This document shows positions 135-18,072 of a stretch of 64,000 nt of DNA, piece after piece. This stretch comes from Calocera cornea HHB12733 (lineage: Eukaryota > Basidiomycota > Dacrymycetes > Dacrymycetales > Dacrymycetaceae): assembly GCA_001632435.1 (NCBI GenBank), contig KV423930.1, positions 218,901-282,900 of the forward strand. Reading direction: 5' to 3'. Each line of letters begins with the position of its first letter. Position 1 is the first letter of the stretch. Both the position numbers and the translations under genes were made by a program. The notes under the pieces are model-generated. The model searched no databases and was not told the DNA's origin. It saw nothing but the letters and a program-made list of their open reading frames with translations.

Positions 135-504
135 TCGCTCGCCCCCGTTCGCTGCCTGGCTTGAGGCGGGAAGAGAGTGCAGTGCAGGGGTGGGCGACGC
201 TGTTGGAGAGGGAGAGGGAGACGGACAGTCGCGTACAGAAAAAGCGCTGAGAAGCAAAGCTGTATTCTAGGAATATACCCTGATGCGCTGATGATACTGG
301 GTCGGGCTCGGGTATTGGGTGGGCTCGGCGTTTGGGCACTGTGTTCTGACGATCTTTGGGCGCTCTGCCCTCTGGGTGTTCGGCGCGCTGGGCGTGAGCT
401 GGGTTCGGCGTATGCAGTGGGCTCGGTGCTCGGTGCTCTATGTTCGCCTGGCGAGCAGCGAGCAGCGCGCTCGGTGTGCTCGGGTGCTGAGAGCATGTCA
501 ACTT
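135..504. other. GC-rich low-complexity intergenic DNA, left flank of the transposon
   Basis: No convincing gene. The stretch is made of recurring GCTCGG / GTGCTCGGG words (about 300-490). The same words (GTGCTCGGG twice) occur immediately outside the right end at about 18,090-18,110. The two flanks thus look like halves of one original GC-rich stretch interrupted by an insertion. Confidence 0.5.
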
Positions 505-524
505 CGTGACAACCCTTCCGGATG
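505..524 (+). repeat. Left terminal inverted repeat
   Basis: This is a perfect 20-bp inverted match to 18,053-18,072. It begins CGTGACAACCC and ends in the first TCCGGA motif. Such terminal repeats with subterminal motifs are the usual binding sites of DNA transposases. Confidence 0.65.
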
Positions 525-585
525 ATAGCATCCGGATGCATCCGGACTGACGTAATCCGGAAAGGGAACCGGATACCAGTAGCCG
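517..585 (+). repeat. Subterminal TCCGGA cluster, left end
   Basis: Several TCCGGA cores lie in about 70 bp, including the self-complementary GCATCCGGATGC, followed by ACCGGATACCAGTAGCCGG. The right end has the same motif spaced every 9 bp. The sites are probably transposase-binding repeats. Confidence 0.5.
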
Positions 586-982
586 GTGACACTTATTTGC
601 CTCCGTTTGCCTCCGCTAAGGGGCTAGGGACGTAGGCCCTCAGTGGCGAGGATATGGTCGCCTCCTCACTGTTGACACGCGGCCTATTGTCCCTTCTCTA
701 TCTGCCAGCTCATCGCCTTACCTGTCTTTGCCCCCCTCCCTCCCTTCCCTCGTCAATGATCGTCCCCCTCACTGCTTGTTACACCCATTCAACGATTCCC
801 GTCGCTACGCTATTCGCCCCGCCGCCTGTTTGTGCCCGTTCGATTTCGAATTGGACCAGGTTTTCGTGTGCACGAGTTGTCGAGGTCTCCTTCACTGTCT
901 CGGTGCGCCCTGTTACTCATACCTCCCCCCTTCATCTGCTGATCTGTTCCCAGGTCTACATCCACCTCTCCATACGATTGCC
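586..982. other. Leader region of the 983 gene
   Basis: No open gene. The stretch contains pyrimidine-rich DNA (about 690-760 and 900-960), typical of fungal core promoters, directly upstream of the ATG at 983. A doubled TTTGCCTCCG word lies at about 597-616. Confidence 0.35.
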
Positions 983-3900
983 ATGTCGGAAAGAGACTTA
1001 TGGCACGAGTACACAACGCGCTGCGCGAGGGCCGGAATTGCGGTCGACTTCAATGCTTACCGACGATGGGCAGCGCAGGAACAGGCTACTCGTGCAGGCA
1101 TGCAAGGCCAGGCGCCCTATCAGCCTTACCAAACCGTCTTCCTGCAACACCGCCCATCCCTGATTGGTGGTATTGACCCAAGGACCGGGCAGCCGATCGG
1201 TGGTGGCCCTTCCTTCGGCGACGGATCCGGGCAAGGGCAGTCTTTCTATCCGCCCAACCCTCCTCCTCGCCCCACGAACCAGGCCCAGCAAGGGCAGCAC
1301 CCTCTCTCGCCCAACCCTCCTCCTCGCCCCACGAACCAGGCCCAGCAAGGGCAGCACCCTCTCTCGCCCAACCCTCCTCCTCGCCCCNNNNNNNNNNNNN
1401 NNNNNNNNNNNNNNNNNNNNNNNNNNNNNNNNNNNNNNNNNNNNNNNNNNNNNNNNNNNNNNNNNNNNNNNNNNNNNNNNNNNNNNNNNNNNNNNNNNNN
1501 NNNNNNNNNNNNNNNNNNNNNNNNNNNNNNNNNNNNNNNNNNNNNNNNNNNNNNNNNNNNNNNNNNNNNNNNNNNNNNNNNNNNNNNNNNNNNNNNNNNN
1601 NNNNNNNNNNNNNNNNNNNNNNNNNNNNNNNNNNNNNNNNNNNNNNNNNNNNNNNNNNNNNNNNNNNNNNNNNNNNNNNNNNNNNNNNNNNNNNNNNNNN
1701 NNNNNNNNNNNNNNNNNNNNNNNNNNNNNNNNNNNNNNNNNNNNNNNNNNNNNNNNNNNNNAACCAGGCCCAGCAAGGGCAGCACCCTCTCTCGCCCAAC
1801 CCTCCTCCTCGCCCCACAAACCAGGCCCAGCAAGGGCAGCGCCGTCTCTCGCCCAACCCTCCTCCTCGCCCGGGTGGCAACCCTCTTGCTGGCTCACAGC
1901 TCAGTGTTTCTCCTCGACCGCCACGCCCTGTCCTCCAGGACAACCCCATCTCCCAAGCCCAGTCCAACGAGAGTCGCTCTCGCAACCAACCGCCTCCAAA
2001 TCCTCTACCTCGTCAGCTTCAGACGCGCCAAGCTTCGAATGATCCTGGTCTGCAGCCTCTCACCCCGCCTGTGAATCCCCAATGGATTCAACTTCGCGAA
2101 AACGACGTACCTGTACCCTTCCTCGAAGCATGGGCTGTTGGAACCCAGATTCCCAGTATGCACGCGAAGAGCGCGTTAACAAGGCCAAAACCACCGCTCG
2201 AGCCCGAGGAGCGGTTTGCGTACTATCAGACCGAGCTTTTCACTCTCATGGCTACTGCGCCGCCGCCGAGAGCGCAGCGTCAACATGTCGCTAGCTGGTT
2301 GAGATCTGCGCACAATGTTGTGGTGAGCACATGCCCGTTCTCTGCAATGAAGACCGTCACTTACATGTCGTCCAGGAATTCATTGGCAATTATGACAGGA
2401 AAAGTGACCTACCACTGATTCGATTCCTCGTCCATCTTGAGGAAGAGGTTTTCAAGATTGCCGACGACCTTCCGTCGCGCAACAACGATCCTGCTGTTCG
2501 TCCCGCCAACCATTCCATCTGGCACAAAGCATTCCCACTGGAGAAAATAATCAAGGACAAAGTGAAGGCTACTCTCCTCCATCGGACTGCCGACCCGTAC
2601 CGAACGCTGCGACGGTGCACCTCTGCACAAAAGATCATTGACGAGATGGCTCGCAACCGATGTTGGCCATTGCCGTGGTACGGCGATTATGCCCAGCTGG
2701 ACAGGGAATGGACGCAGCACGCCCTGCAACAACGCGCGCGCTGGGTGGTACGTCACGGCTCTCTTGCTCTGTACTTCGCTTGCTTATCATCTGTATTTAG
2801 CACGCATATTGGGACATGCATGCTCGTCAGGAGTCAGTCTACTATGAAGAAACGCGTGGTTTTATTGAAGATGAAGTCGTCTACCTCCTGTCTTTTCACT
2901 GGAACGAAGGTTTCCCCGATCCCCTTATCAACCGTGCGACTGCCCAAAGGTTCATGAACTGGAACTCGATGAAGAGGCGTCTTGATGAAAAGGAACCATG
3001 GACGCTTGTCAACTGGGATTGGTACTCGTCACTGTTTATCGAGTGCTGCCTCAAGCCTTGCGATGTTCGCAAGCCGAGGGCACGTGGGACGCCCAAAGAG
3101 CGCGTCATCTCACATTATAACCTTGTCCATCTCCTCACTGTCAGTTACCTCTATTCAACGTGATGCTATTCTCTGACATGCTATTACAGCGAGATACGAT
3201 CTCCTGTCATCACTGGTCCAATGCAGTCTACACCGAGGAAATGGCAATAGTTCTCGTCTCACTCATTCAGAATACCCTCGATTGGCTAATGCACTCTGAC
3301 GACTTCGATTGGTGCTTCGCGGATGACGAGATACCTCGAGCTATCTATGAACAACTGCTCGTCGTTGTTCACGGCATCACTCTCAATCGTCCGGCCCGTG
3401 CCCTCAGTTCCAGGTTGCTCCGCACACAGAATGACCCGATGCCTCCAGAGGAAGTGCATCACTTTATGCTCCGTCACATCAAGAGGAATCGGCGCGAACC
3501 CGATCCCGATCCTCTAGAGTACGATGTTGATATGGACGCAAGCGATTCAGCATCGTCGAGGTCGTCTAGCCGAGCCCGGAGGACCAAGCATATGCCAAAG
3601 TGTGGCGCTCCTCCCCAGGAGCTCGTAACGGAGTATTGGAAGATGCCCGTGTACAACCTGGAGAACTTTCCCTTGATCCAAGACGTACGCAGGAACTTGG
3701 AGTCAAGGATTCATGACCCAAGGTATCTTCCAGGAGATATCATTGTAAGTTGTCTCGCAATCATAGCACAGGCTCCCGCTTATCTCATTGTCAGCTTGCC
3801 TGGGGTATTCGTGCCTGCTACGCATGCTTATGGAGATCCACACGCCTAGGAGTTGGCCGTACTTGCCCTCGCTGGGAACGACAACGTTGTTCACCGTGTC

Positions 3901-4245
3901 GGCGTAAGACCGGGGACTCATATTGCGTTTTCTGCAGTGAGAAGTGGGGCAATGGTAAGCACCCTTTGTTCCTTTCAACCCCTACTGATTGGTTGTACAG
4001 TTTCAGTTAAGGACCGTGATCCACGCGGCAAGCGAAACAAGGAGATCGATGAAGATTGGATCGACAACATTATTCGAGACAAGTGGTTTGAAGGGGGGGA
4101 CGATTTTCCACCTCCTGAGGGCTACAGCGTCGCAGTGCCCGAGATTTGGCCCACTGTCGAGGCGATCTACAGCAATGCTCGGGGCTTGAAAGATGCACTG
4201 GCTTCGGCAAAGGTCACGCAGAAGCACTGGAAGAAGGCGAGGTAG
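983..4245 (+). CDS. Unknown protein with 19-residue Pro/Gln repeats and a C-terminal cysteine cluster
   Basis: I do not recognise this protein. The ATG at 983 opens MSERDLWHEYTTRCARAG. Next comes a tandem array of a 19-residue unit (NQAQQGQHPLSPNPPPRPT), interrupted by a run of N, then a conserved-looking acidic/aromatic region (EEVVYLLSFHWNEG, about 2860-2905). Near the 3' end is a cluster of eight Cys from about 3,810 to 3,950 (CYAC, RTCP, CSPC, CVFC), and the stop is at 4243-4245. Short introns are clear, for example 2323-2375 and those near 2748, 3138, 3746 and 3954. The same intron borders and exon pieces recur in the decayed copies at 5.0-11.3 kb, so this looks like the intact founder. 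Its position just inside the left terminal repeat suggests a transposon accessory gene. Confidence 0.6.
1246..1871 (+). repeat. 57-bp tandem repeat (19-residue unit) with assembly gap
   Basis: Near-identical 57-bp units encode NQAQQGQHPLSPNPPPRPT in frame; two full copies precede and two follow a run of N. The unit length is a multiple of three, so copy-number change keeps the reading frame. Inverted single or double copies occur at 6145-6258, 8590-8645 and 11,420-11,490. Confidence 0.85.
1388..1761. other. Assembly gap (run of N) inside the 57-bp array
   Basis: There are 374 unresolved bases. Both borders lie inside the 57-bp repeat, so the gap is most simply collapsed or unresolved extra repeat units. 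The true length is unknown. Confidence 0.95.
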
Positions 4246-4375
4246 TGAATTCAATCATGTATCAGTTGTTCTGTCTCTAGCTGAAGTGTTACTCCCAATA
4301 CAATGCAGTTTACAGCCGAAAATCACGTCCCATCCAGACGAATTCCATGCAAAGCTAACCTTTTTTCACCAGGGC

Positions 4376-4615
4376 ACGTACGGCGACCACATACTCCAGC
4401 AACGAGATACGCAGGCGATCAGGTACGCAAGAGCCCAGATACTCGGCCAACCAGGTACGCAGGCGACCGAATCCTCAGGCGACCAGATACTGATGCACCG
4501 CAATACTTAGGCTGCCGAATACTTGGGCTGCCGAATACCTGGGTTCACGAATACTTGGGTTCCCGAATACTTGGGTTCCCGAATACTATGGTTCCCGAAT
4601 ACTTGGCCCACTTAG
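4376..4615 (+). repeat. 16-bp minisatellite, locus 1
   Basis: About fourteen imperfect 16-bp units read GAATACTTGGGTTCCC or GATACGCAGGCGACCA, more uniform toward 4500-4612. Each contains an ATACTTGG-type core. Because 16 is not a multiple of 3, the translated frames cycle and are not a protein. It is one of four loci in the element (see 6786, 9537, 12,778). Confidence 0.8.
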
Positions 4616-4689
4616 GGCGTGCGGGATGCTTCCCGGGACTTTGTACCAAGGGATGGTATACACTCGAGACGGTGATTGTTACGCCGGCG

Positions 4690-5040
4690 CCGCTCTAGCC
4701 GTCTCACGGCTGCACATCCTCTGTCTCCTCACCACCCGTCTCGACGGCACGGGCAACATCCAGTATGCGTTGACGATCAAGGGTTCTTGTCCGGTGCTAT
4801 ACAGGATGTATGGTACGGAACAATTGTCAGCAGTCGTTCCAAGATGCCCATGAATCCATGCATCAGGGCAGTCAAACTCAAGCTCAGCGACTCTCAAGCT
4901 GAGTATCATAATCATGCAGATCCCTCCCAAGCTCCAAATCCTCACGTGCGTCCTCAACAGATGGAGGACATCATCCGAAGCAGCCCCGTCCAACGAGGTC
5001 GACTCCAAACTTTGCGAAGATCTTCTGCAGAGGTGCCCAC
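4690..5040 (+). pseudogene. Decayed RPS18 fragment 1
   Basis: At about 4711-4780 the sequence CACATCCTCTGTCTCCTCAC ... CATCCAGTATGCGTTGACGA matches exon 2 of the intact RPS18 gene (12,140-12,200). Farther on, the LQTLRRSSAEVP-type remnant before 5040 resembles the SKLRDDL region. Frameshifts and missing parts leave no functional product. Confidence 0.6.
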
Positions 5041-6125
5041 TGAGTGGTACGTCTTAGTCCACTCGCTCTCGGTGCTTCACTTGCTTACATTCGGTATGCA
5101 GCAAGCATATTGGGACATGCCTGCTCGAGGTGGGCGCGTGTGCTTTGAGCCCACGCAAGGGATCGTGGAAGATCATACCCTTCACGTCTCCTCGGCACAC
5201 TGGAACGAGGGAGTCAAGGATTCCCTTCTCCACCGTACGGCCAGTCAAGACTTTGCTAATTGGTTGGACATCAAGACGGCCCTCAATGAGAGACGTGAAT
5301 GGCCTCATTATACACAGGCAACAAGGAACCATCCACAATCGATGTATGTATCAATATCCCCTTCTGCTTATCGAGACTTAATAGCGGCGGGCATATGATA
5401 GATTGACTTCCACGTGGTCTATCATATGTGCCAGTCAGATACAACATCAACACACCTCGGATCGCAACATCAGCCACTGCAACCACTTTGACTTGCGTTG
5501 CCTTCAACTTCTGCTTCAACTTCAACTTCAACTTCTGCTTCGACCTCTTCTTGGACTTCGGCTTTGTCTCAGCTTGATGGACTGAACAGTCTGCTTGGCA
5601 CGGGTAACCAGACACCGCGTCGCTGCGACCCGTCTATGAGTACCAGCATCCTCACTGTCTGTTACCCCCATTCAACGTGCTTCATAGTACTGACATGCTA
5701 TTACAGCGGTGATGTACCAGTCTGCTCTGGAAACCAGTCGGCCGGTCCTCAGAGGCACTCGGCGATGGATGCATTGAAGCATCAATAGGGCTACACGGGC
5801 TCAGCAACAAGGACTAAGATATGCTAAGGCAGTTATCATTGTAAGTTGTCTCGCATTCGTATCATCCCATATTCACTGATCTTCATGTCAGCTCGCCTAA
5901 GACGCATACCAGCGTTTCTGTTGATTCCAGTCTGGCATATCCCGCACGATAGGCTGTTATGCACACATGCTCGTTCTCTGCATTGAAGACCGTCACCGGC
6001 TAGTGGAAATCCCACTTGACTCCCTATTGGCGGATGCATCGATCTACAGCGGAGCGTTGTTCAGGGAGCTTGGCACGGCTCATTCTTGGACTGCCGACAT
6101 TGACCGTTGCATGCCGGACGAGCCC
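5040..6125 (+). pseudogene. Decayed, rearranged copy of the 983-gene family with KDZ remnants, unit 1
   Basis: Pieces align by eye to the 983-4245 gene: 5046-5270 to 2745-2960 (intron start plus the W-N-E-G exon), 5645-5705 to 3130-3190 (intron CCTCACTGTCTGTTACCCCC...TTACAG), 5830-5900 to 3735-3800, and 5960-5995 to the intron at 2325. The block at 5335-5425 resembles the KDZ transposase intron at about 15,830-15,900, inverted. The order is scrambled relative to the intact gene and no long frame survives. Confidence 0.55.
5495..5570 (+). repeat. Imperfect CTTCAA/CTTCTG hexanucleotide tract
   Basis: A short run of 6-bp units (ACTTCAACTTCTGCTTCAAC) encodes alternating Ser/Thr in one frame. It is the smallest of the hexamer arrays in the element and sits at the same place in the unit as the arrays at 7674 and 10,508. 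Confidence 0.65.
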
Positions 6126-6144
6126 TAGCTCAACTGATTACCGC

Positions 6145-6258
6145 CTGGGCGAGGAGGAGGGTTGGGCGAGAGAGGGTGCTGCCCTTGCTGGGGCTGGTTC
6201 GTGGGGCGAGGAGGAGGGTTGGGCGAGAGACGGTGCTGCCCTTGTTGGGCCTGGTTGC
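6145..6258 (-). repeat. Inverted copy of the 57-bp repeat
   Basis: Two units of the 57-bp repeat are present in reverse complement (GGCGAGGAGGAGGGTTGGGC...). They are followed at 6305-6345 by the GAGGCTGCTCGACAAGCTGG word that also occurs in the 13,122 gene (13,676 onward). Confidence 0.75.
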
Positions 6259-6259
6259 C

Positions 6260-6785
6260 AACAAGAATCCGCTTCAATTGCCTCAGTTGACAAGGCGTGC
6301 AAATCCATCTCAAGAGGCTGCTCGACAAGCTGGTCAAGCCGCATCGCTCAAGCCGCAACTTCTGAATATGTATCAACCTTCAGTCTGTGGGTTACGTCCA
6401 TTCAGATGCATGGCACGATCTCATAAATTACCAGATGCCTGATGATAGCGCAACCTTGACGTTGCTGTTCAGTAGCGCCGGCATTCTTGGCTGATATGAC
6501 CTCTTGCGATTTGCTGCCATAATGCAGACTGCCTGTCTGTCAAACTGACCAGCATTACCTCTGCCTGCATACGCCAAGTTCTCTTCGTACAAGATCAACT
6601 CTCCCATTAGAACCATCGCCGTCAACTGCGATGGGTTTGAACGGCTATCACCAGGTTGCGATCGTATCCACTCCAACTTGCTCCCCTCACTCAGCATTCA
6701 CGAACGGCGACAAGGCCTCTGTTTGGCTCTGATTTAGCCTCGACTGTACGCTGCCTTGTCTCCGTGAAGGCAACCGACATTCCGG
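6260..6785. other. Gene-free remnant sequence
   Basis: No intact gene seen. The first 80 bp hold the AAGAGGCTGCTCGACAAGC word shared with the 13,122 gene and with 8,697 and 11,560. The remainder (6400-6785) matches nothing else that I could recognise in the window. Confidence 0.35.
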
Positions 6786-6965
6786 TAGTCAAGTACTATG
6801 GTGGCCAAGTACTCCGGCAGTCAAGTACTCCGGTAACCAGGTACTAAGGTCCCCAAGTAATGAGACGCCCATATACTTGGGCGTCCATATACTTGGGCGC
6901 CCGAATACTTGGGCGCCCGAATACTTGGGCGCCCGAATACTTGGGCGCCCGAATACTTCGTCGAG
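6786..6965 (+). repeat. 16-bp minisatellite, locus 2
   Basis: About eleven units; the most regular part (6865-6955) repeats GCGCCCGAATACTTGG nearly perfectly. The unit contains the self-complementary core GGGCGCCC. Confidence 0.85.
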
Positions 6966-8500
6966 TATTCGCCCGCCCGATGGCCCGCCGGACTTTTCAT
7001 GAACCCGTTGCATCCACTCTCGGACACCTCCAGCAGGACGAGTTCCTTACGATTACGGTGCAGACTCTTCACGATGGACCACCGACTGCCATTAGCTCGA
7101 CCTGAGTAGGGCGATGTGCATAGCTGGGCACGAAAGGGCTTCTGCGCTCTGCAGAGACGCGGCCAATGAGTGGTACGTGCTCCCCTCGCTGTCCGTGCAT
7201 CACATGCCTACCTTCTGTATCTGGCAAGCATATTGCGTTATACTTGCTCGATGTGGTCACAAGGCCTTCAAGGCCACCGACGTGATCATGGAAGACGATG
7301 CTTTTCACTTGTTATCGGCTCCATGGAACGAAGGAGTCAAAGGTCCCTTCTCAACCGCACGACCACCCAACACTTCGCCAACACCTTTACAATTCAAGAC
7401 TCTCATTTGGGAAAACCAGGCGACGGCTTCATCGCTGTCCGAGCGAGAGTTGCTACAAGCCAGCCATTATACAGTCAGCTTACTGTGCGGCCTTGTGGTA
7501 TGTATCACAATGGCCCAGGATCCCTCTACCGACCGATGCAACATCACCAATCGCTGTATGTATTAACCTCCCCTTCTGGTTATAAAGACTAATCAGCGGC
7601 AGCCTTACCATGGATTGACTTCAACATGATGCACCCGTTGCCCGAGTCTGATGCTTCATCGACATGCGTTGGATTGCTACTTGGACTTCTGCTTCGACTT
7701 TGACTTCTGCTTCTGCTTCTGCTTCTGCTTCTGCGTCGACGTCTGCTTCAACTTCGACATCTGCTTCAACTTCGACATCTGCTTCAACTTCGACATCTGC
7801 TTCAACTTCGACATCTGCTTCAACTTTGACGTCCACTTTGACTTCTGCATCGGCTTCAACTTCTGCTTCAGCTATACCATCGATGTCTGCTTATACTTCG
7901 ACTTCAAATTATACTTCTGCTTCTGCTTATACTCGGTCTACTTCTGCGACTCCAAGGTGTGCAGAATCTACTTAGCACGCTGGAACAGGCATGATGTCTC
8001 AAGCTACTGCCTGTCTATCTATATCATCAGTCCTCACTGTCTGTTGACCCCATTCAACGTGCATCATATATCTGACATGTTACTACAGATCACATCCGGG
8101 CCTCATATGGAATCAACACGGCCGATCCCCAAAGGACTCGACCATGTGCATAGTCAGAACCATCTAGAAGGATGCACAAGCGTAGCAAGCACAACCCAAG
8201 ATGAGATAGGGCGGATACCATTGTAAGTTCCAGGTGTTCGTCTCAGGCAGGATTGCTTAGCTTCATGTCAGTTCCCCTAGTAGACATATGAGAGCCACTG
8301 TTGCTGTCAGCCTCAGGTATATCACACAGTAGGCTATGGTGAACACATGCCCGTTCTCTACAAGGAAGACCGTCACTGGCTGTGGGAGGCCCCCCTTGGC
8401 TCCCTATTGGCGGATGCATCGATGTGCAGGGAAGCGCCTTTCAGGACATCTGACCCTGCTAGGCCTGCCCTACCGATGTCGGATGTTACACAGCCCGCTG
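6966..8500 (+). pseudogene. Decayed copy of the 983-gene family with KDZ remnants, unit 2
   Basis: Block order follows unit 1: 7166-7370 (TGAGTGGTACGT... to ...GGAACGAAGGAGTCAAAGG), 7440-7570 (contains TGTGCGGCCTTGTGGTATGT, close to the KDZ transposase at about 15,940, inverted), a hexamer array, 8033-8095 (intron CCTCACTGTCTGTTGACCCC...TACTACAG), 8215-8275 and 8336-8400. Frames are broken throughout. Confidence 0.55.
7674..7965 (+). repeat. CTTCTG / CTTCGACAT-type hexanucleotide array
   Basis: About 290 bp of 6-bp-based units (CTTCTGCTTCTG; ACTTCGACATCTGCTTCA as an 18-bp higher-order unit repeated four to five times) encode Ser/Thr/Ala-rich sequence in one frame and KLKQMS repeats in another. 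No real protein context. Confidence 0.8.
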
Positions 8501-8582
8501 GGCGACCACTGGATGGTCTGGTTACTGTCTGGGCCAGGAGATCGGCTGGGCATGCAAGTGGGGTGCCCTGGCTGGGGATCAT

Positions 8583-8760
8583 TGCCGTCGAGGCGAGGAG
8601 AAGGGTTGGGCGTGTGAGAGTATTGCCCTTGCTGGGGCTGGTCACCATCAGGAATCTGCTGCAAGCACCTCAGTTGGCAAGACCTGTCGACCCATCTCAA
8701 GAGGCTGCTCCACAAGCTGGTCAAGCAGCAACCCCTCAAGTCACTATCTGAGCGACTGCG
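8583..8760 (-). repeat. Inverted 57-bp unit plus shared tail, unit 2
   Basis: GGCGAGGAGAAGGGTTGGGC...TTGCCCTTGCTGGGGCTGG is one diverged, inverted 57-bp unit. It is followed by AAGAGGCTGCTCCACAAGC as at 6310, which shows that units 1 and 2 share a common layout. Confidence 0.65.
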
Positions 8761-8869
8761 TGAACCATGACACAGTATGCTACCCCCCTTCAGACGAATG
8801 GCTTGTACTGACTCAGTCTCAGTTCAGGGGCAAGCCCACGCCAATATAAGTCCGGATCTACTTGTCCAT

Positions 8870-9240
8870 GAGGATACTGGAGAGATGGCACATTCACGGT
8901 CTACCAGCAAGTGCAAGATCCAGTATGTGCGGACAGGGATTGAGGAGTTCGCAGGCACTATGCCAGCGTGGTCTGCAATAAGGCAAATGTTGACCTGAAG
9001 GAGTGGTGCGTCGTAATCCAGCGCATATTGACATGAGAAGCTCATGAATCTATCTGACAGGGCTGGCGAACTCAACTCCCAGGAGCTTGGGCGGATCGTC
9101 ACCATCATGCAAACCCCCATCCTATTCAAGATCCCCTCGCGGTTCCTCAACAGGCAAAAGGACATCACCGACGATAGGATCTCCCAGATCCTGTCCAATG
9201 GCCGTCTACTCCAAGCTTGGCGACGATCTTCCCCATTCAG
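8870..9240 (+). pseudogene. RPS18 pseudogene 2, intron 2 retained
   Basis: Exon-2-like sequence (AAGTGCAAGATCCAGTATGT..., 8908-8995) is followed by a recognisable intron 2 (GTGCGTCG... to ...GACAG, about 9003-9060). Exon 3 then encodes [19 protein letters not shown] ... WFLNRQ-like [13 protein letters not shown] up to about 9225. Exon 1 and the C-terminus are missing and frameshifts occur. Because the intron is kept, the copy arose by DNA duplication rather than retroposition. Confidence 0.8.
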
Positions 9241-9536
9241 CAAGCATACTGGGACATGCATGTTCCGGTTTAGCGCATGCACGTCAAGCTCACGGAAGGG
9301 TTCGTGGAAGACTGCACTTGCACTTCTTATCGGCTCATTGGCATGAGGGTGTCGAAGATCCCCACCCGAATCGTGTATTGCCTGCATCGTCACCGGCCGC
9401 AATGGCTTTGACCAGTTGAAGCCGTCCGGAACGCTCAGTCTTGGGATTGCCCTGCGCTCTCATGGAAGGCAACAACTCTTTGTTAGCTCTGCATCATCCC
9501 GACCTCACGCCTGCTCGTCTCCATTGTGGCGTCCAA
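9240..9536 (+). pseudogene. Fragment of the 983-gene family after RPS18 pseudogene 2
   Basis: 9240-9360 matches the exon seen at 2805-2935 and 5105-5235 (AAGCATACTGGGACATGCATG ... CGGCTCATTGGCATGAGGG...). The remaining ~170 bp resembles nothing else recognised. Confidence 0.5.
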
Positions 9537-9738
9537 ACACTCGGGCGATCAAGTACTCCGGTCATCAAGTACTGGGGCAATCAGATACTGAGGTGCCCAA
9601 GTACTGAGGCGCCCGGACACTTGGGCGCCCAGATACTTGGGCGCCCAGATACTTGGGCTCCCAGATACTTGGGCTCCCAGATACTTGGGCGCCCAGATAC
9701 TCTGGCAACCAAAAACTGAGGCGCCGAGATACTTCATC
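9537..9738 (+). repeat. 16-bp minisatellite, locus 3
   Basis: About twelve units; the core of the array (9610-9705) reads CGCCCAGATACTTGGG with few changes. Same unit length and register as the other three loci, with A/G variation at the CCGAAT/CCAGAT positions. Confidence 0.85.
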
Positions 9739-11300
9739 GAGGAATGGCCTGCTAAACGCATACCCAGACTTTCCATCAACTCTTCGCTTCCACTCTCGGG
9801 TACCGCCAGCACAACAAGTTCACTACAATTATGGGGGAGAGACTTCATGATGGACCGCCTATTCCAGCTCCCCCTAACAAGCCTGTAAGCGGAGCGCAGA
9901 ACTCCATTATCTCGATGTAGTGAAGGGGACGTACGTGGCTGGGATGGCCAGATTGCTTATGCCCTGCAGTGACGCACCTGATGAGTGGTACGTCTTGCCT
10001 CCACTCGCTCTCTGTGCGTCGCTTGCTTACCTTCTGTACCCAGTATGCATATCGGCACATGCCTGGTCGAAGTTCACGCATGCAGGTCAAGCTCACGAAA
10101 GGGATCGTGGAAGACGATGCCTTGCACGTCTTATCGCCTCATCGGAATGAGGAGTCGAAGATCTCCATCCAAATCGTGCGACCGCCCAAGGCTTGATGAA
10201 CTTTATTGCGCATCAAGACTGGTCTCTACGAAAGCGGATGACCCACTGATAGTTGCCAGAGCAAGAGAGGCAAGAAGCCCTCCACACTATGAGTACGTTG
10301 ATGTATGGCCCTGCACTACCACATCGGCGGCGGATGCATCTACGGTCCCATCTGCCATCCTCAATCGCTGTATGCATCATGCTCCCATTCCGTTTGTAGA
10401 GACTGATCAACTGCTCCCATATCATAGTTTGACTTGGAAACCATCCACCCTTTGCGCAAGTCAGATGCTGAACCAACATGCTGCTTGCTTCCATGTAGAC
10501 TAGTCGGATGTTTGCTTCTACTTCTACTTCTGCATCTGCCTCAACTTCGACTTCGACTTCGACCTGTACCTCGACTCCTACCTCAACTTCAACTTCAACT
10601 TCTACCTCCAGTTCGACTTCTACGTCTACTTCTACTTCTACTTCCACTTCTACTTCCACTTCGACTTCTACTTCGACTTTGACTTCGACTTCAACTTCAA
10701 CTTCTACTTCTACTTCTACTTCTACTTCTACTTCTACTTCTACTTCTACTTCTACTTCTACTTCTACTTCTACTTCTACTTCTACTTCTACTTCTACTTC
10801 TACTTCTACTTCTACTTCTACTTCTACTTCTACTTCTACTTCTACTTCTACTTCTACTTCTGCTTCGACTTCGACTTCGACTTGTGCACCTACTCCGACC
10901 TCTACTTCTACTACAACCGCTGGTCTCACTGGGACTTACGCTTCTGCTTTCTCGGTGACGTAGACTGGTGGAGTGAAGAGATCACTTGGCAGGCTAGATG
11001 CAACTTGGACTCTCACTTACATATGGCTCCATCAGTATCAGCAACCTCACTGTCAGTTACCCCAGTTCAACGTGCATCATACATCTGACATGCTATTACA
11101 GGTCTGCTCAATGATGATGATATGCAAGCAAGACAGCGGACTGGGGAAGCAAGTCATCATTGAATAGAACTCAATCTATCAACAGGCAATTACAATCGCG
11201 TCAAGATCGTCCCAATACCTGCTAGAGGAGATCTCATTGTAAGTTACCCAAGGAATCGTCTGCATCCAATCTGCTTATCTGTATGTCAGCTTGACCGATC
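9739..11300 (+). pseudogene. Decayed copy of the 983-gene family with KDZ remnants, unit 3
   Basis: Blocks recur in the same order: 9770-9850 (similar to 7005-7080), 9985-10,200 (GTGGTACGTCTTGCC..., GGGATCGTGGAAGACGATGC), 10,360-10,400 (CAATCGCTGTATGCATC), the large hexamer array, 11,045-11,105 (intron CCTCACTGTCAGTTACCCC...CTATTACAG), and 11,230-11,300. No gene-length frame apart from the repeat itself. Confidence 0.55.
10508..10912 (+). repeat. (TCTACT)n hexanucleotide array
   Basis: About 400 bp of 6-bp units. Between roughly 10,700 and 10,862 the TCTACT unit is essentially perfect, which indicates recent expansion. One frame reads (Ser-Thr)n, the other strand (Glu-Val)n. The 5' part is more degenerate (CTTCGACTTCGACC). 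Confidence 0.95.
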
Positions 11301-11419
11301 GGGCAAATTTGGAACGTTCACTGTATCTCTGCCCAAGTCGGCTCTTGCAAGTAGCAGGGGGCAGGCACTGGCTGGTCGCGTTACTGCCTGGGTGGGGAAG
11401 ACGACTGAGCGTACGTGTT

Positions 11420-11650
11420 GGTTGCCCTTGCTGGGGCTGATTGCCGTGTGGGCAAGGAGAAGGGTTGGCCGTGTGCACGGGCTGCCCTTGATGAACCTGC
11501 TTGCCGCCGAGTCTCCCATACCAGGACATCAATTGACAAGATATCTTATTCTATCTGAAGGTACCGCTCGACAAGCTGGACAAGTTGCCCTTCTCCAGAC
11601 TCTACTCGACAAGCTGGTCAAGCTGATATCTCCACTCACGAAGCGGCTGA
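11420..11650 (-). repeat. Inverted 57-bp unit plus shared tail, unit 3
   Basis: TTGCCCTTGCTGGGGCTGAT...GGGCAAGGAGAAGGGTTGGC repeats a diverged inverted 57-bp unit with a duplicated part. It is followed by two copies of the CTCGACAAGCTGG word (11,568 and 11,607). Confidence 0.6.
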
Positions 11651-11768
11651 TCGAGCACATCCTCTGGCTCCTCAACATGGATGTCAATAGCAAGCGCAAG
11701 ATCCAGTATGCGCTGACGGAGATCGACGGTGTTGGGATTCCCTATGCCAGCGGGGTTTGCAAAGAGCG
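11650..11768 (+). pseudogene. RPS18 exon-2 fragment 3
   Basis: GAGCACATCCTCTGGCTCCT ... AAGCGCAAGATCCAGTATGC ... GGGGTTTGCAAAGAG matches exon 2 of the intact gene with missense changes. It breaks off where a second GCGCAAGATCC word starts the 206-bp tandem repeat. Confidence 0.75.
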
Positions 11769-12180
11769 CAAGATCCAGTATGCGCTGACCCTCAAATGCT
11801 CACACGCATCGACCTTCTGCACGTTGCCAAAATGTCTCTCGTCGTCCCCGAGGCTCACCAGTCTTTCCAGGTCAGTACAATCCGCTGGATGCTTTACAGA
11901 ATCGCATCCTGACGAGGTCATCCACTTCTGCAGCACATTCTCCGTCTTCTCAACACCAACGTCGACGGCAAGCGCAAGATCCAGTATGCGCTGACCCTCA
12001 AACGCTCACACGCATCGACCTTCTGCACGTTGCCAAAATGTCTCTCGTCGTCCCCGAGGCTCACCAGTCTTTCCAGGTCAGTACAATCCGCTGGATGCTT
12101 TACAGAATCGCATCCTGACGAGGTCATCCACTTCTGCAGCACATTCTCCGTCTTCTCAACACCAACGTCGACGGCAAGCG
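11766..12180 (+). repeat. 206-bp tandem duplication of RPS18 leader, exon 1, intron 1 and start of exon 2
   Basis: The stretch starting CGCAAGATCCAGTATGCGCT at about 11,768 is repeated from about 11,974 almost without change (one visible C/T difference, CTCAAATGC vs CTCAAACGC). Each copy holds the leader, ATG (11,832 and 12,038), exon 1, donor, intron 1, acceptor and the first part of exon 2. Only the second copy runs on into the intact gene. Confidence 0.9.
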
Positions 12181-12674
12181 CAAGATCCAGTATGCGCTGA
12201 CGGAGATCAACGGTGTCGGCAGGCGTTATGCCAACGTGGTCTGCAAGAAGGCCGATGTTGACCTGAAGAAGCGGTGCGTAGTGACTGTCAAGATCATAGC
12301 GGGGAGCTCATGAATCATGTAACAGGGCCGGCGAACTCAACTCCGATGAGCTTGAGCGGATCGTTACGATTATGCAAACCCCCACCCAATTCAAGATACC
12401 CACGTGGTTCCTGAACAGGCAAAAGGACATCACCGACGGAAAGAACTCGCAGATCCTGTCCAACGGTGTCGACTCCAAGCTCCGCGACGATCTTGAGCCG
12501 CTGAAGAAGATCAGGGCGCACAGGGGTCTCCGTCATTTCTCGGGTATCCATGTGAGGGGTCAGCACACAAAGACGACGGGTACGTTCCTATCTCTCCGAA
12601 TATGTGTAGCTGTTCTAATTGATTTTGCAGGTCGTCGTGGTAAGACCGTCGGTGTGTCCAAGAAGCGTAACTAG
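12038..12674 (+). CDS. RPS18: 40S ribosomal protein S18 (uS13)
   Basis: This small-subunit head protein contacts tRNA and the bridge to the large subunit. Four exons join in frame: 12,038-12,076, 12,140-12,273, 12,326-12,579 and 12,631-12,674, giving 156 residues, the usual eukaryotic length. Recognisable motifs are [68 protein letters not shown] and a basic C-terminus. All donors are GTNNGT-type and no stop or frameshift is seen. The start matches the universal N-terminus of the family. Oddly for a core translation gene, it lies in a field of decayed copies of itself within a proposed transposon, with its leader and exon 1 tandemly duplicated upstream. Confidence 0.96.
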
Positions 12675-12777
12675 ATTCATATTCATGATGATTAGGTTCG
12701 CTATGCAGATCATGATACATAATACTACTATTCTCTGCCCTTGCGGGTGATGAAACACTTTGGTCATTGGATACTAC

Positions 12778-12940
12778 ATCCCCAATATACTTGGGAAACG
12801 GTATACTTCGGAGCCCGGATACTTGGTTATCTGGATACCTCGGTGCCCAGATACTCTGGCGCCCAAATACTCTGGCGCCCAAATACTCTGGCGCCCAAAT
12901 ACTCTGGCGCCCAAATACTTTGGCGCCCAGATACTCTCGT
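12778..12940 (+). repeat. 16-bp minisatellite, locus 4
   Basis: About ten units, downstream of RPS18. The right half (12,850-12,935) repeats GCGCCCAAATACTCTG five to six times with almost no change. Confidence 0.85.
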
Positions 12941-13121
12941 GTTTGCTGGCTGAGAGGTTTTCTGTGTAACTCCGAGTGTTTGTCCGGTGTATGGCCCGTG
13001 CACAAGAAAATATAGACCCTATGATTGATGAAGATGTACCAGCGTCAATCCACCATCGTCTCTTACCCAATCGGGCCCATTTCACTCATTTAAGACACCT
13101 TTACTCCTGGCGAACATCAAG

Positions 13122-15035
13122 ATGTCAATTCCCAATCTCACTATTCAGAAAGTTATGTCAATAATGGGTCTCGCCGAGCTTGAAGACCGGCAGTGCCCAG
13201 TATGCTTTGCAGCATGCACAGTACATGTCTTCAAGAACTCCAACGGAAAGCGCCCACAAGACTGGGGACGAATCTTCTCACATGTGAGTCTGTTTGACTG
13301 TATCAGCCTGGAAATGCTGACAAGTTCCAGTGTCCAACCCACCATACCCAGTCTTACAAGCTCATATCACCCCAGGTCCCTAAAGACCTCCGCGACGACA
13401 TGCAGGCGGAACTTCTTGGCTACCAACATTCAGATTTTGCATCGAGCCCACCAGCCAGTCCGTGCAAGCCAGCTTGGCTCAATCAGAGTCCAACCAAACA
13501 ATCCGGAACCGATTGTACGGGCTGCAGAGTGAGAAGGGGCAACAAAGCGTGCTATTTTCACTATTGTCGGCCATGCTGTCTGGATCGACAGAAGACACGG
13601 GCTGTCACTGCATGTGGAGAGCACAAGCCAGATGCAACATCCTGGACGCTTCCTGCACACTTTAATGCTTCTCAAGATGCTGCTCGACAAGCTGGACAAG
13701 CAGATTTCTCTCAAGCAACTGCTCGACAAGCTACACAAACGAATGACCTCGATCTATTTGCACCTTCCAGTGGTTGGGCAACAACTCCTCTTCCTACCCA
13801 ACCCCCGCTCCCTACCCAAGCGCCACGTGCATTTCAAGGCATTGCAGAGCATCGCAAGGGACTTGGGAAGCCAGTCAGTGTCGAGTATTCTGCGATGAGG
13901 AAGACCCTGCATTCGATCCAAGAAGCTCAGCGTGAAGAAGCGCTAGAAGCTCGAAAGCGAGAGGAAGAAAAGGCACGCCTTTTCAGTGTGATTGTCTTTA
14001 CACAGGTATGTCGGAGTCGGTGCAAGAAAGTGTCTGCTGACAGCTGGTTGATAGGCAGGACCGCGCACCTTTGCTGGCCTTCTTGCACTTCAAGATAGTA
14101 CTGGCCTTTCCACTTGAATTTCAGCATGGAAAGGGCCAATCAAGAAGTACTTGGTGGAGCAGCTTGGACCGGATTTTGACGCTTTAGAGCTGTACAATCC
14201 AGAAGCGGCAACTTGGGAGGACTATCCGTGCGACACAATTCGGTCCGTGAAGTCAGGCGAGCGTATTATCTGTCGAATTGGGAGTGTTCCGGAAGATATG
14301 GCTATGCTGCAGGAGGAGATCATGAAAGTGGCTTACCGGGTGGAACCTCGTGACGGCTGGCGTCGATCTTCTCGAGTGCGGCGTGACCGTCCAATATGGG
14401 GATCACCCTCGGAGAGAGGTAGTATCAGTCCTACCAAGGAGATGAACTCCCGAGAGGGGTTGAAGGAGAAGTCGAAGGAGAAGTTGAAGGAGAAGTTGAA
14501 GGAGAAGTCAAAGGAGAAGTCAAAGGAGAAGTCAAAGGAGAAGTTGAAGGAGATGGGTCAGAAGAAACGGCGGGCCAACTCTCACACATCTGACTCTAGT
14601 GGTGTGGAAGTGGTCGAGCACGAGATCCAGATGCCTATGTCACCCAAGGAGAACGTGATGCAGATCCCCTCGGACTCAGACGAAGGCAATTTGGCTCCAA
14701 TCAAGGTGGCCCCCATGCGCAAACGTGGAGGAAAGAAGTCATGGTTTACCTCTCGATCCTTTGGTTTTGTTCGGGATGTCTACAATCGCGTGGAATATCT
14801 GAAGAGCGAGGAAAGGATGTGCTTTGACGAAGCCGTGCTGCGGGTGACAAATGTGGAGATCGCCAGTTCAACTTGGTGGGACAATACCGATTGTCTGGAG
14901 CTAGCGTCCACCGAGACACTGGCAAAGTTCATCAAGGAGCCAACACGTCTGTGGGATGACTTTCGGTTGGAGGTGAACCAGAAGAAAGAGAAGAAGCCGA
15001 AGCAAAAGAAGCAAAAGAAGTACCCGATGGAGTGA
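13122..15035 (+). CDS. Unknown protein with GRF-like zinc finger, Cys-rich cluster and KEK repeats
   Basis: After ATG 13,122 a GRF-like finger is visible: CPVCFAACTVHVFKNSNG, then WGRIFSH spliced (intron 13,284-13,330) to CPTHHTQSY. A second cluster follows (DCTGCRVRRGNKACYFHYC, then CC and CGEH). After a helical region (EAQREEALEARKREEEKARL) come a domain with LYNPEAATWEDY and GERIICR, KEKLKEKSKEK repeats (14,460-14,550) and a basic C-terminus ending at TGA 15,033-15,035. Many mushroom genomes carry expanded families with this general layout and no known function; that is recollection, not a search. The frame slips by one base near 14,130, either a missed intron or a real or assembly frameshift. 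Its QDAARQAGQAD coding words recur in the decayed units. Confidence 0.55.
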
Positions 15036-15387
15036 TACGGCAAGCCAAGTTGCTGGGGCCGAAATATTCATACCAAGTCAGTCTTTAATTAACATTTGAA
15101 ACTTCCTCAACTACGACATTCTGGAATGCCAGTATCACATTCGTTTCAGCTTCTGAAGATAGACATAGAGTACGATGAAATTATTCTAATATTATGATCA
15201 TTCCTGTAAAGTCCTATGTGCACTCTCGCAATTATCGCACTGTCCCATCACGCTGTTCTACAAGCTGGTCAAGCTGACGTGCCTCAAGTCACTTTGTAAC
15301 AAGTATGGCTGCAGTTATGGGAGAACTGACGACAAAGCGGAATTCAATGTGAATGATTCTAACTGAATACATATATTTGTGACATAT
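15036..15387. other. AT-richer spacer between convergent genes
   Basis: No gene. It contains one more fragment of the shared TTCTACAAGCTGGTCAAGC word (15,256-15,275) and AT-rich 3'-UTR-like DNA serving two convergent genes. Confidence 0.4.
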
Positions 15388-17720
15388 CTAGTCGAAAAGC
15401 TCACTAGACGGGACTAAGTGGGGCATATGGCCGCGCTTCCTGAGTTCCTCGACGATATGACGGTTGCGTTCCTTGATAACTTCGTCAAGAAAGAACTCAT
15501 ACCGTACTGGCAACATCTCTCGAACGATGGACTGATAATTGTTGATCCACGCATTGGTTTGCTCGCATGCCGATGAATTGAATGTCCAGGTCTTCTTTTC
15601 TTCGTCAAACAGCTCTGGATAAACCAGGGCGTTGCAATGGCGACCACAATACTCGTCAGCAATCGAATGCTTCGTCTTGTAGTGGAAGATATCGACCACC
15701 AGAGCCGTGTCCTGGAAATGATGACGCAATTTGGGGCGGTCAGCGATGTAGCGGTGCAGCTGACAGTTGTTATCATAGAACACCACATCCGGTAGTGACT
15801 TGCGTGAAGGGAAGACGGACATTAAGAAATCCTATGAATTCCACGTGGATGATCAGATGCTGCAACCAGAAGGGTATCGTGATACATACAGCAACTGAGG
15901 AAAGGGCCTCGGCTCCATAGAATGTTCCCCGAGAAAGGATGACACCACAAGGCCGCACAATAAGCTGCTCGTTGTGCGTTCGACGCCTGGCAAATCTTGC
16001 CCTTACTCTCTTCTCCTTGGGCTGTGCACCGGCTGACTGTGCAGCTGCTTGATGTGCTTGTACTTCAACGTCTGCTTCGGCTTCTGCTTCGAGATCTGCT
16101 TCGACTCCAACTTCTTCGGTGTCCGGCTCAAGTAGTTCAGGACCTCGTATGTATTCAGTTGCTCGCTGAAGTCGTGTCTTCAAGAGGTTGAATGATTGCC
16201 CGACAGCTTTGTAGTTGAGCTCTACTTGGCGATGATCGGGGCGACTGCAAGTTCGCATGTCTTGTTCAACCGGCTGGTCGCAGTCTTCAATAGCGCAAAT
16301 ATGATTAAGTGGCTCGTGCAACTCGCAATACCTTGCACGGTTGTTGGGGAGAGACTTCGCGCAGTTATGAACACTGCAGCATGGTCGACCGATTGAAACA
16401 CCATCTGTGATGGCACAGGATAATGTGTCTGTTGTATGATGTAAGCTTATCGTTGAGAACACACACGAGACCTTCTTACATTCTTGTCCTTCACGAATGA
16501 AGTGCTTTTGACAAAGATCGCAAGCATGAGCCCAATATTCTTGGCCGGTGCCTGCCATGAACCGATTGCGGTCTTCCATCGCAACTGCAAGCCGATCCAC
16601 CTCGTTGGCTGCAGATTCTGGGAGCTGCAGGCGACTGCGTTGTTCGTGATGATGTAGAAGTAGGGCGTACAGGTCAAACGCAGTGGCAATGTCTTTGGGC
16701 TGCAGGTGGGGTACGTCGCACCCGTGTTGGGGTGGCGCGGAAAGGGTGGAGTTGTAGACCTTGGAGGTTGCAGTGAAGGATGAACTAGAAGTAGAAGTCA
16801 ATCCAGAAGTAGAAGTCGATCCAGAAGTAGAAGTCGATCCAGAAGTGGAAGGCAATCGAGAAGGCGGAGTCGAACCAGAGTCGGAGTTGACCCAGGTCAA
16901 AGTAAAAGTAGACGTCGAGGCAGAAGCAGAAAGGAAGTGGTCAGTATAACACAGACAAATGAAGATGAACTGGGCTGACTGAGAATGGACTGTGAGGGAG
17001 CGAAAGAGCTGACACAGCTTGCTTTCGAATAAGGCGTGCTGTCGCACTTTGATAACGCTCGGCACCCCTTCATAGTAGACCCTCCACTCGGTATGATCAA
17101 TGCTTGTCTTGCAGTAGTAATTGAGGTGATAGGTCGAGGAGCATGAACGGCAGCGTAAGGAAGTAACGATGACGGGAAAGGCGCCTCGTCCAACGGTATA
17201 TAACGCAGCCATATATCGTCGAGGGTCGTGTAAACGATGCGCCTGTCCGGTGGTTTGCAGATGAGGGCAGTCTTGATTGAGGCATATGCGGGTGGGAGGA
17301 TAGAACTCCTCAGCCGCTGCAGATCATGTTAACCGGGAAACGCAAGCTATGTGACTGATATGGCTTACCAAGTTGGCCGGCATTAGTGTGTTGAGCGAAT
17401 GGCCCATAGTCGTCGATGAGCGGAGGCGTTACAGCGGTAACATCCCTCTGCTTCACCCAGACAACAGATCGAAGTACATGCCAGAGCGCATGCACTTGAA
17501 TGGGTGTAACAGACAGTGCGTTTGCCAAAAAGGAAAGTCCTGATTCAGGGAGACTCGCAGGCGGATCGTCGACGTCGTATAGCAAGACGAGTTGCTGCCA
17601 CGCGATCCTATTCTGAAGTCGCCTGACAATGCCCATGAATGCCAGTGCTTGCTCAGTTGAAACATCGCCGATCCACTCTCTCAGCTGCCAGATCCGGTTG
17701 GCAAGATCCAGAAGCGACAT
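15388..17720 (-). CDS. KDZ-family transposase with CxC5 and CxC6 cysteine clusters
   Basis: This is the transposase of Kyakuja-Dileera-Zisupton DNA transposons, an RNase-H-fold DDE-type enzyme. Reading 17,720 to 15,388: MSLLDLANRIWQLREWIG; an intron near 17,335; the CxC5 cluster (RICLNQDCPH ... CRSCSSTYHLNYYC); a Ser/Thr tract from a hexamer repeat; a helical part; CxC6 (DGVSIGRPCCSVHNC, RYCELH, CAIEDCDQP, RTCSRPDH); then the KDZ core (RPCGVILSRGTFYGAEALSS, an intron at about 15,834-15,891, VVFYDNNCQLH, TWTFNSSACEQTNAW, FFLDEVI) and TAG. The exons can be joined in frame around the core, so it may still be functional. It faces inward from the right terminal repeat. The order of clusters matches the compact form of the family as I know it. 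Confidence 0.85.
16762..16930 (-). repeat. Hexanucleotide tract inside the transposase gene
   Basis: GAAGTAGAAGTCGATCCA-type units (plus strand) encode STSGSTSTSG on the transposase strand, between the CxC5 region and the VYNSTLS segment. The same (Ser-Thr) hexamer makes up the arrays at 7674 and 10,508, linking those to KDZ sequence. Confidence 0.7.
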
Positions 17721-17810
17721 TGTAAAGCGAAAGAGACGCGCGATAGTAGTACAGAGCACTGCCGAAAGAGCAAGCAAGAGGTTAAGTAAGATCGCCAGGG
17801 CTAGCAACAG

Positions 17811-17872
17811 AAGTAGAGGTATAGCAGAAGTAGAAGTACGAGTCGAAGTCGAAGTCGAAGTAGAAGTATAAG
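17811..17872 (-). repeat. Hexanucleotide tract upstream of the transposase
   Basis: About ten GAAGTA/GAAGTC units (AGTCGAAGTCGAAGTCGAAG) lie about 90-150 bp 5' of the transposase ATG, in its probable promoter or leader. Confidence 0.75.
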
Positions 17873-18052
17873 TGGTACACGAATACGCGATGTTACGATC
17901 CTTCCGGCGCTTGACGATACAGTCACAAAGTGGAATCTTGATTTTCGACGGAGCGAAAGAGCTTAAGGGTAGCGATAATGGAACCTGTTCGGCTATGTAC
18001 CGGTTAGTATCCGGATCGTCCGGATCGTCCGGATCGTCCGGACCCAAAACAG
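17873..18052. other. Subterminal region with 9-bp TCCGGATCG repeats, right end
   Basis: TCCGGATCG is repeated about three and a half times at 18,009-18,042 with a further TCCGGA at 18,055. Just outward of the leader, ACCGG and TAGCCG words mirror the left end in inverted order. No gene. Confidence 0.55.
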
Positions 18053-18072
18053 CATCCGGAAGGGTTGTCACG
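18053..18072 (-). repeat. Right terminal inverted repeat
   Basis: Exact reverse complement of 505-524. GC-rich GTGCTCGGG sequence begins directly outside it. Confidence 0.65.

What the first reader, a model, noticed from the sequence alone, without database searches (positions are those of the whole stretch)
505..18072. A 17.6-kb KDZ-type transposon bounded by perfect 20-bp inverted repeats and carrying an intact RPS18 gene
CGTGACAACCCTTCCGGATG at 505-524 is exactly inverted at 18,053-18,072, and both are followed inward by clustered TCCGGA motifs. A KDZ transposase faces inward from one end and an unknown Cys-cluster gene from the other. GC-rich low-complexity DNA with shared words (GTGCTCGGG) lies directly outside both ends. 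If correct, a DNA transposon has engulfed, duplicated and still carries an intact ribosomal protein gene, making the host depend on it or giving it a spare copy. No target-site duplication was found.
Basis: partly seen in the sequence, partly recalled or inferred. Interest (0 to 1): 0.9.

Follow-up and report, generated by a model that had tools for sequence, protein, structure and literature searches.

The report
Fungal transposon carrying a ribosomal gene
A 17.6-kb jumping gene in a jelly-fungus genome has swallowed a complete copy of an essential ribosome gene, apparently in more than one step, while the fungus still keeps its own normal copy elsewhere.

Summary
The 20-bp inverted repeat is real and rare, but the ends lie 16 bp further out on each side. 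Two 521-bp, presumably nonautonomous, relatives (C70, C58) share those outer ends. The element is 489-18088, flanked by an exact 8-bp duplication, CGGGTGCT (481-488, 18089-18096). The host is Calocera cornea HHB12733, inferred from identical proteins. The right-hand gene is a CxC5/CxC6 protein with only a sub-threshold KDZ match, but a full-length homologue models as a DDE transposase. The element also carries gene 1, gene 2, a decayed internal array and five RPS18-derived pieces. One piece is a full three-intron gene encoding 156 aa. The host keeps an ordinary RPS18 on C62, so it does not depend on this copy. The captured gene is a mosaic: introns 1+2 differ from the host at 3 of 115 sites, intron 3 at 17 of 48. 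I read this as an old capture later partly overwritten from the host. It has four amino-acid changes, three of them where all five displayed RPS18 relatives agree; it is probably a passenger, though some constraint is not excluded. Fungal precedent: histone H3 captured by a hAT element.

The parts
481..488 (.). left copy of the 8-bp target-site duplication CGGGTGCT
   Evidence: identical to 18089-18096 at the offset set by the homologous ends of C70 and C58
489..504 (+). true left terminus GAGAGCATGTCAACTT outside the 20-bp repeat
   Evidence: C58 element begins GAGAGCATGTCAA and C70 element GAGAGCATG
505..524 (+). left arm of the perfect 20-bp inverted repeat
517..561 (.). left subterminal TCCGGA cluster (4 copies)
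983..4245 (+). gene 1, inward-facing, Cys-rich C-terminal part, at least 6 exons; a run of unread bases lies in its proline-rich N-terminal part
   Evidence: splice model; identical to CALCODRAFT_506812 over the shared exons
4380..11606 (.). internal array of three decayed units (about 4380-6414, 6781-8802, 9528-11606) with minisatellite blocks and gene-1-derived pieces
   Evidence: self-comparison, roughly 62-72% identity over the longer alignments
4709..5024 (+). RPS18 fragment F1, decayed
   Evidence: 79.7% over 79 columns and 66% over 191 columns to host gene on C62
8907..9230 (+). RPS18 fragment F2 (exon 2 - intron 2 - exon 3)
   Evidence: 80.8% over 328 columns to host gene; intron 2 differs at 17 of 52
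11654..11762 (+). RPS18 fragment F3 (exon 2)
   Evidence: 80.7% over 109 columns
11765..11995 (+). RPS18 fragment F4: tandem duplicate of 11971-12201 (5' leader, exon 1, intron 1, start of exon 2)
   Evidence: 99.6% identical over 231 bp
12038..12674 (+). RPS18 F5: complete gene, exons 12038-12076, 12140-12273, 12326-12579, 12631-12674; 156 aa
   Evidence: homologous stretch 11997-12691 is 94.4% identical to host gene
13122..15035 (+). gene 2, 596 aa model, Cys-rich N-terminal part
   Evidence: splice model; relatives in Calocera viscosa
15388..17720 (-). transposase gene: CxC5 + CxC6 + DDE-type C-terminal domain
18010..18060 (.). right subterminal TCCGGA cluster (5 copies)
18053..18072 (-). 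right arm of the perfect 20-bp inverted repeat
18073..18088 (-). true right terminus CCCCTGGCACGTAGTG (reads CACTACGTGCCAGGGG inward)
   Evidence: shared with C70 and C58; a 27-bp pattern over this end matched 3 places genome-wide, this one included
18089..18096 (.). right copy of the 8-bp target-site duplication CGGGTGCT

Best explanation
489-18088 is a 17.6-kb cut-and-paste DNA transposon of the CxC5/CxC6 lineage related to KDZ elements, of which no second copy was found in this genome. It inserted into a GC-rich GTGCTCGGG tract and duplicated 8 bp. The right-hand CxC5/CxC6 protein is its DDE transposase (inferred from fold and conserved residues) and presumably recognises the ends and their TCCGGA clusters (inferred). 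A DNA-level copy of host RPS18, introns included, was taken into the interior (shown by the three retained introns). Further RPS18 fragments lie within an array that also repeats gene-1-derived pieces. At some later time the 5' two thirds of the one complete copy was replaced or re-captured from the host gene (inferred from the sharp jump in intron divergence). The present RPS18 copy is most likely a passenger that no longer makes a normal uS13; the host uses the C62 gene (inferred).
Against: PF18758 (KDZ) scores 19.0 bits in the window protein, below the 26.6 cut-off, and only 2 of 26 homologues match at E<=0.01. Profile comparison with the genome's own KDZ proteins was weak, E 0.095 and 0.32. 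Foldseek gave 0 PDB matches at E<=0.001, and VIA-align only re-ranks Foldseek's candidates. C58 has no duplication, 1 of 8 bases. The window's duplication lies in a repetitive tract where 6 of 1089 8-mer pairs match. GC content is no clear mark: the element is 52%, but much of the 20 kb to its left is 52-56% too. The two-layer reading leans on one 48-bp intron. The 3' exons of F5 differ at only 5 of 84 sites where about 22% would be expected without constraint (the cut at codon 130 was chosen after seeing the differences), which argues against simple neutral decay.
Confidence: 0.78

Rival explanations
1. The element-borne RPS18 is a functional second ribosomal protein gene kept by selection, a spare or a variant uS13.
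For: Frame, stop and all splice sites kept. dN 0.0112 and dS 0.0767, ratio about 0.147; a neutral simulation of 12 changes gives P(aa changes <=4) = 0.0038. If only F5 is neutral and the host is fixed, P = 0.042. 3' exons 5 of 84 against a neutral expectation of about 22%, P 7e-5 (cut chosen after the fact).
Against: Four amino-acid changes, K37N, R116P, W130S, R133H. K37, R116 and R133 are unchanged in 5 of 5 displayed PDB relatives, W130 in 4 of 5. Only about 41 bp upstream of the start codon is shared with the host gene, so no host promoter beyond that came with it. The open frame itself says little: 70% of neutral simulations also had no stop. Part of the low divergence may reflect recent overwriting from the host rather than selection.
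Confidence: 0.2
2. The CxC5/CxC6 protein is an accessory DNA-binding protein, and a separate transposase (a full KDZ protein elsewhere in the genome, or a retroelement) moves the element.
For: In Pleurotus ostreatus no KDZ gene was found near CxC5/CxC6 ORFs and the authors proposed a link with Copia elements (PMC7641404, passages). The genome has 51 listed PF18758 matches, none in the window.
Against: The homologue's model has a DDE-type RNase H-like part and an ordered D, D, E set is conserved across 26 homologues. None of the other nine segments of the element scanned with Pfam matched a transposase. An 8-bp duplication and inverted repeats do not fit Copia (recalled).
Confidence: 0.12
3. 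The RPS18 pieces come from one capture only. F5 stayed coding under selection while the other pieces decayed, and intron 3 merely evolved fast in the host.
For: F5 shares some synonymous states with F2 against the host gene (codons 52, 53, 101) and a codon-37 third base with F3.
Against: Introns 1 and 2 of F5 are near identical to the host (3 of 115); intron 2 of F5 differs at 1 of 52 where that of F2 differs at 17 of 52 (p 3.6e-5). Selection on exons does not explain conserved introns.
Confidence: 0.25
4. Not a transposon: a segmental duplication or chance inverted repeat in a low-complexity region.
For: No second copy of the 500-bp ends was found; empty site not seen.
Against: Paired ends recur in two other places as 521-bp elements with the same terminal order, one with a 7-of-8 duplication. 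Relatives of all three genes occur together on contig C238 of this genome.
Confidence: 0.03

Closest known systems
KDZ (Kyakuja-Dileera-Zisupton) DNA transposons of fungi
   Same: Terminal inverted repeats and 8-bp duplications as reported for Zisupton, and 8-bp duplications for a Dileera family (PMC12730594, passages); weak C-terminal match to PF18758; a cargo gene carried inside, as TET/JBP in those elements.
   Different: The CxC5/CxC6 protein falls below the KDZ model's cut-off; no TET/JBP domain among Pfam matches in the 10 segments scanned; termini are GAGAGCATG...CACGTAGTG; cargo is a host ribosomal protein gene.
CxC5/CxC6 insert that disrupts MSH4 in sporeless Pleurotus ostreatus (PMC7641404, passages)
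   Same: A CxC5/CxC6 ORF (739 aa there) inside a mobile-looking insert; many copies of CxC5/CxC6 regions in the genome.
   Different: That insert is 6,792 bp. The words 'target site', 'inverted repeat' and TIR do not occur in its main text. The authors linked it to Copia elements. Here ends, a duplication and a DDE-type fold are shown.
Histone H3 captured by a hAT transposon in Pseudocercospora fijiensis and relatives (PMC6710886, abstract)
   Same: A DNA transposon took up a housekeeping gene while the original stayed intact.
   Different: There amplified to hundreds of copies and inactivated by RIP; here one element with five RPS18-derived pieces, one complete, and signs of repeated input from the host gene.
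Helitrons with captured genes in Pleurotus ostreatus (PMC4289320, passages)
   Same: Basidiomycete transposons carrying captured genes.
   Different: Rolling-circle elements; the word 'ribosomal' occurs 0 times in that main text.

Membership tests
KDZ DNA transposon | transposase with PF18758 domain at or above Pfam's cut-off | tested here: inconclusive
   E 0.0012, 19.0 bits against 26.6 required, profile positions 119-217 only; 2 of 26 homologues at E<=0.01
KDZ DNA transposon | 8-bp target-site duplication (Zisupton, Dileera) | tested here: met
   CGGGTGCT exact in the window; 7 of 8 in C70; 1 of 8 in C58
KDZ DNA transposon | terminal inverted repeats | tested here: met
   perfect 20 bp starting 16 bp inside the ends; the outermost 16 bp agree only in part
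CxC5/CxC6 protein family | PF18718 and PF18721 over cut-off | tested here: met
   88.5 and 90.8 bits
DDE transposase fold | RNase H-like core with ordered D, D, E | tested here: met
Kyakuja | 7-bp duplication, CA..TG ends, no inverted repeats | tested here: not met
   8-bp duplication, inverted repeats, GAG..GTG ends; definition from PMC12730594
transposon capture of a host gene | homologous donor elsewhere in the genome, introns retained (DNA-level) | tested here: met
   C62 gene, same three introns
mobile element | empty site in a sister strain | not testable with these tools
   no relative genome is held for this host

The most novel reading that the evidence does not exclude
A DNA transposon maintains a coding ribosomal protein gene as standing cargo: it has been re-supplied from the host locus more than once, kept in frame with working splice sites, and now encodes a variant uS13 that could enter ribosomes and favour the element or act as a poison subunit.
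Probability: 0.12. Interest if true: 0.82.

Novelty: new variant of a known kind. Interest (0 to 1): 0.52.

Why it matters
It gives defined ends, an 8-bp duplication and short relatives for a CxC5/CxC6 element, and supports the view that CxC5/CxC6 proteins, which one published study could not connect to a transposase (PMC7641404, passages), are themselves DDE transposases. It also shows a complete, intron-bearing ribosomal protein gene inside a DNA transposon, with layers of different divergence that let one measure how often a transposon draws sequence from its host gene.

Tried and rejected
Rejected: ends at 505 and 18072, because homology with C58 and C70 runs 16 bp further out on the right in both relatives and on the left in C58, while C70 keeps only the outermost GAGAGCATG there. 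Rejected: host dependence on the transposon copy (C62 gene). Rejected: the transposase being one of the PF18758 places listed at E<=0.001 (0 of 51 in the window). Rejected as a mark of the element: GC content, since much of the 20 kb to the left is 52-56% like the element. The 500-bp ends gave no other full copy of the element. Led nowhere: profile comparison of CxC5/CxC6 with own-genome KDZ alignments (weak); sequence search of solved structures with the homologue alignment (8 matches at E<=1, none a transposase); Foldseek alone (0 at E<=0.001). The right ends of the C5/C185 copies could not be fetched, so the duplication of that family is unknown. One C205 match to the S13 family was not examined; I guess a mitochondrial S13 (recalled, untested). 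Beyond two own-genome DNA searches, whose matches outside C17 were the C62 RPS18, the C58 and C70 ends and matches confined to the CxC-gene part, I made no systematic scan of the element for other captured host genes. Protein searches scored only the roughly 8000 candidates sharing most words, so their lists may be incomplete. Literature searches listed no paper whose title or abstract start reports a ribosomal protein gene inside a KDZ-type element; I opened four of the listed papers (PMC12730594, PMC7641404, PMC4289320 as passages, PMC6710886 as abstract). Iyer et al. 2014 is not held and was not read.
Full report
Observation. The 20-bp sequence is present exactly at 505-524 and inverted at 18053-18072. 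Allowing two mismatches the genome holds four sites: these two, one on C70 and one on C58; the reversed control gave none. The window is part of contig C17 of a 32.1-Mb, 302-contig genome. Two proteins of the database are identical to window translations over the exons they share and are named from Calocera cornea HHB12733, so I take the host to be that dacrymycete (the class is recalled).

Boundaries. On C70 and C58 the same right-hand sequence continues 16 bp beyond the 20-bp repeat, CCCCTGGCACGTAGTG in the window. A 27-bp pattern across that end matched three places with no mismatch, this one included; the reversed control gave one match among those allowed up to three mismatches. Both places are 521-bp elements that begin with GAGAGCATG and end with CACATAGTG or CATGTAGTG. 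In the window GAGAGCATG begins at 489, again 16 bp outside the repeat. With ends at 489 and 18088 the flanks are CGGGTGCT on both sides, an exact 8-bp duplication. In C70 the flanks agree at 7 of 8 bases; in C58 at 1 of 8. Among all 8-mer pairs from 200-bp flanks, 14 of 37249 are identical in the window, and 12 of 37249 agree at 7 or more in C70. Within the 40-bp tracts next to the window's ends, which are repetitive, it is 6 of 1089. GC content steps from 66% in the 488 bp to the left to 52% inside and 62% in about 20 kb to the right, but the 20 kb further left average 57% and much of them lies at 52-56%, so GC does not by itself mark the element.

Family in this genome. CxC6 was found at 23 places, a lower bound. 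On C238 a CxC6 match (20737), gene-2 matches (21957-23711) and two blocks of gene-1 matches (24163-25886, 28454-30065) follow each other with the same relative orientations as in the window; a search of C238:18501-33609 with the C62 stretch that holds RPS18 gave nothing. Outside C17, gene-2 matches lie on 12 contigs, of which 4 (C238, C5, C7, C95) have a CxC6 place within 10 kb; gene-1 matches lie on 3 contigs, of which 2 (C238, C142) do. Three CxC6 copies on C5, C15 and C185, of four places with the same score, are about 99% identical over some 760 bp, and their left ends stop at one position (CCAATAGCGTCAGGG...) with unrelated flanks. This shows that CxC5/CxC6 elements move in this genome; the other ends of those copies could not be fetched.

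RPS18. A search for the S13 family gave 7 matches: 2 exons on C62, 4 on C17 in the window's element, 1 on C205. The C62 gene encodes a 156-aa RPS18 in four exons. The element's complete copy, F5, has the same four exons and three introns, so it was taken as DNA, not as mRNA (inference). Its similarity to C62 begins about 41 bp before the start codon and ends about 17 bp after the stop. Four further pieces, F1 to F4, lie at 4709-5024, 8907-9230, 11654-11762 and 11765-11995. F4 and 11971-12201 are 99.6% identical over 231 bp, a recent tandem duplication. F1 and F2 lie within an array of three units, roughly 62-72% alike over the longer alignments, that repeats pieces of gene 1 and minisatellite blocks.

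Two layers. Against C62, F5 differs in the 42-bp leader at 5, exon 1 at 0 of 39, intron 1 at 2 of 63, exon 2 at 4 of 134, intron 2 at 1 of 52, exon 3 at 6 of 254, intron 3 at 17 of 48 plus 3 gap columns, exon 4 at 2 of 44, and the 60 bp after the stop at 27 of 58 plus 4 gap columns. Introns 1+2 against intron 3: p 5e-8. Fragment F2 differs in intron 2 at 17 of 52, the same level as F5's intron 3. The simplest reading is an old capture, seen in F2 and in the 3' part of F5, and a later overwriting of F5 from the leader to about the end of exon 3. Some synonymous states shared by F5 and F2 or F3 against C62 can be host-side changes or exchange within the array and do not settle the order. A weakness is that the old layer of F5 rests on one short intron; the sequence after the stop may simply lie beyond the captured piece.

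Function of F5. Of 12 coding differences 4 change amino acids: K37N, R116P, W130S, R133H. In the five PDB relatives displayed of 132 matched, K37, R116 and R133 are kept in 5 of 5 and W130 in 4 of 5. dN 0.0112, dS 0.0767. If both genes were neutral, P(4 or fewer nonsynonymous of 12) is 0.0018; if only F5 is neutral, 0.042. The open frame alone is weak evidence: 70% of neutral simulations kept it too. The 3' exons from codon 130, a cut chosen after seeing the differences, differ at 5 of 84 where a neutral F5 would show about 22% given intron 3 (P 7e-5), whereas F2's exons (42 of 260, 16%) are near the neutral value of 20%. So past constraint on F5 is suggested, but the changed residues and the lack of a captured host promoter make a normal uS13 role unlikely today. 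No expression data were available.

Known work. Zisupton elements and a Dileera family make 8-bp duplications; Kyakuja makes 7 bp and lacks inverted repeats (PMC12730594, passages). A CxC5/CxC6-bearing insert of 6,792 bp disrupts MSH4 in sporeless oyster mushrooms; its authors found no KDZ gene nearby and suggested Copia involvement (PMC7641404, passages). Here a CxC5/CxC6 homologue itself models as a DDE transposase. Capture of a housekeeping gene by a fungal DNA transposon is known for histone H3 and hAT (PMC6710886, abstract). I therefore class this as a new variant of a known kind.

Noticed in passing
L003/L053 (C70:99892-100412) and L055 (C58:169356-169876): Two 521-bp relatives of the element, 84% alike over the aligned part, matching it only near the ends.
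   Followed up: yes
L069-L070 (C238:20737-30065): A second three-gene element with two gene-1 blocks and similar minisatellite matches, without RPS18.
   Followed up: partly
L071, L072, L073 (C5, C15, C185): Three near-identical CxC5/CxC6 element copies with one sharp left end; a recently active family.
   Followed up: partly
window 10500-10900 and 7670-7950: Long CTTCTA/CTTCGA-type tracts inside the array, with related words on the opposite strand within the transposase gene near 16.8-16.9 kb.
   Followed up: no
window 4382-4650, 6781-6963, 9525-9734, 12744-12940: Minisatellite of about 16-bp units (CGAATACTTGGGCGCC type, unit read by eye) recurring between the units of the array.
   Followed up: no
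window 36001-38000: GC 72% with strong skews, the most GC-rich 2-kb stretch of the window.
   Followed up: no
G000:C205:4440-4577: Distant S13-family match, perhaps a mitochondrial S13 gene.
   Followed up: no
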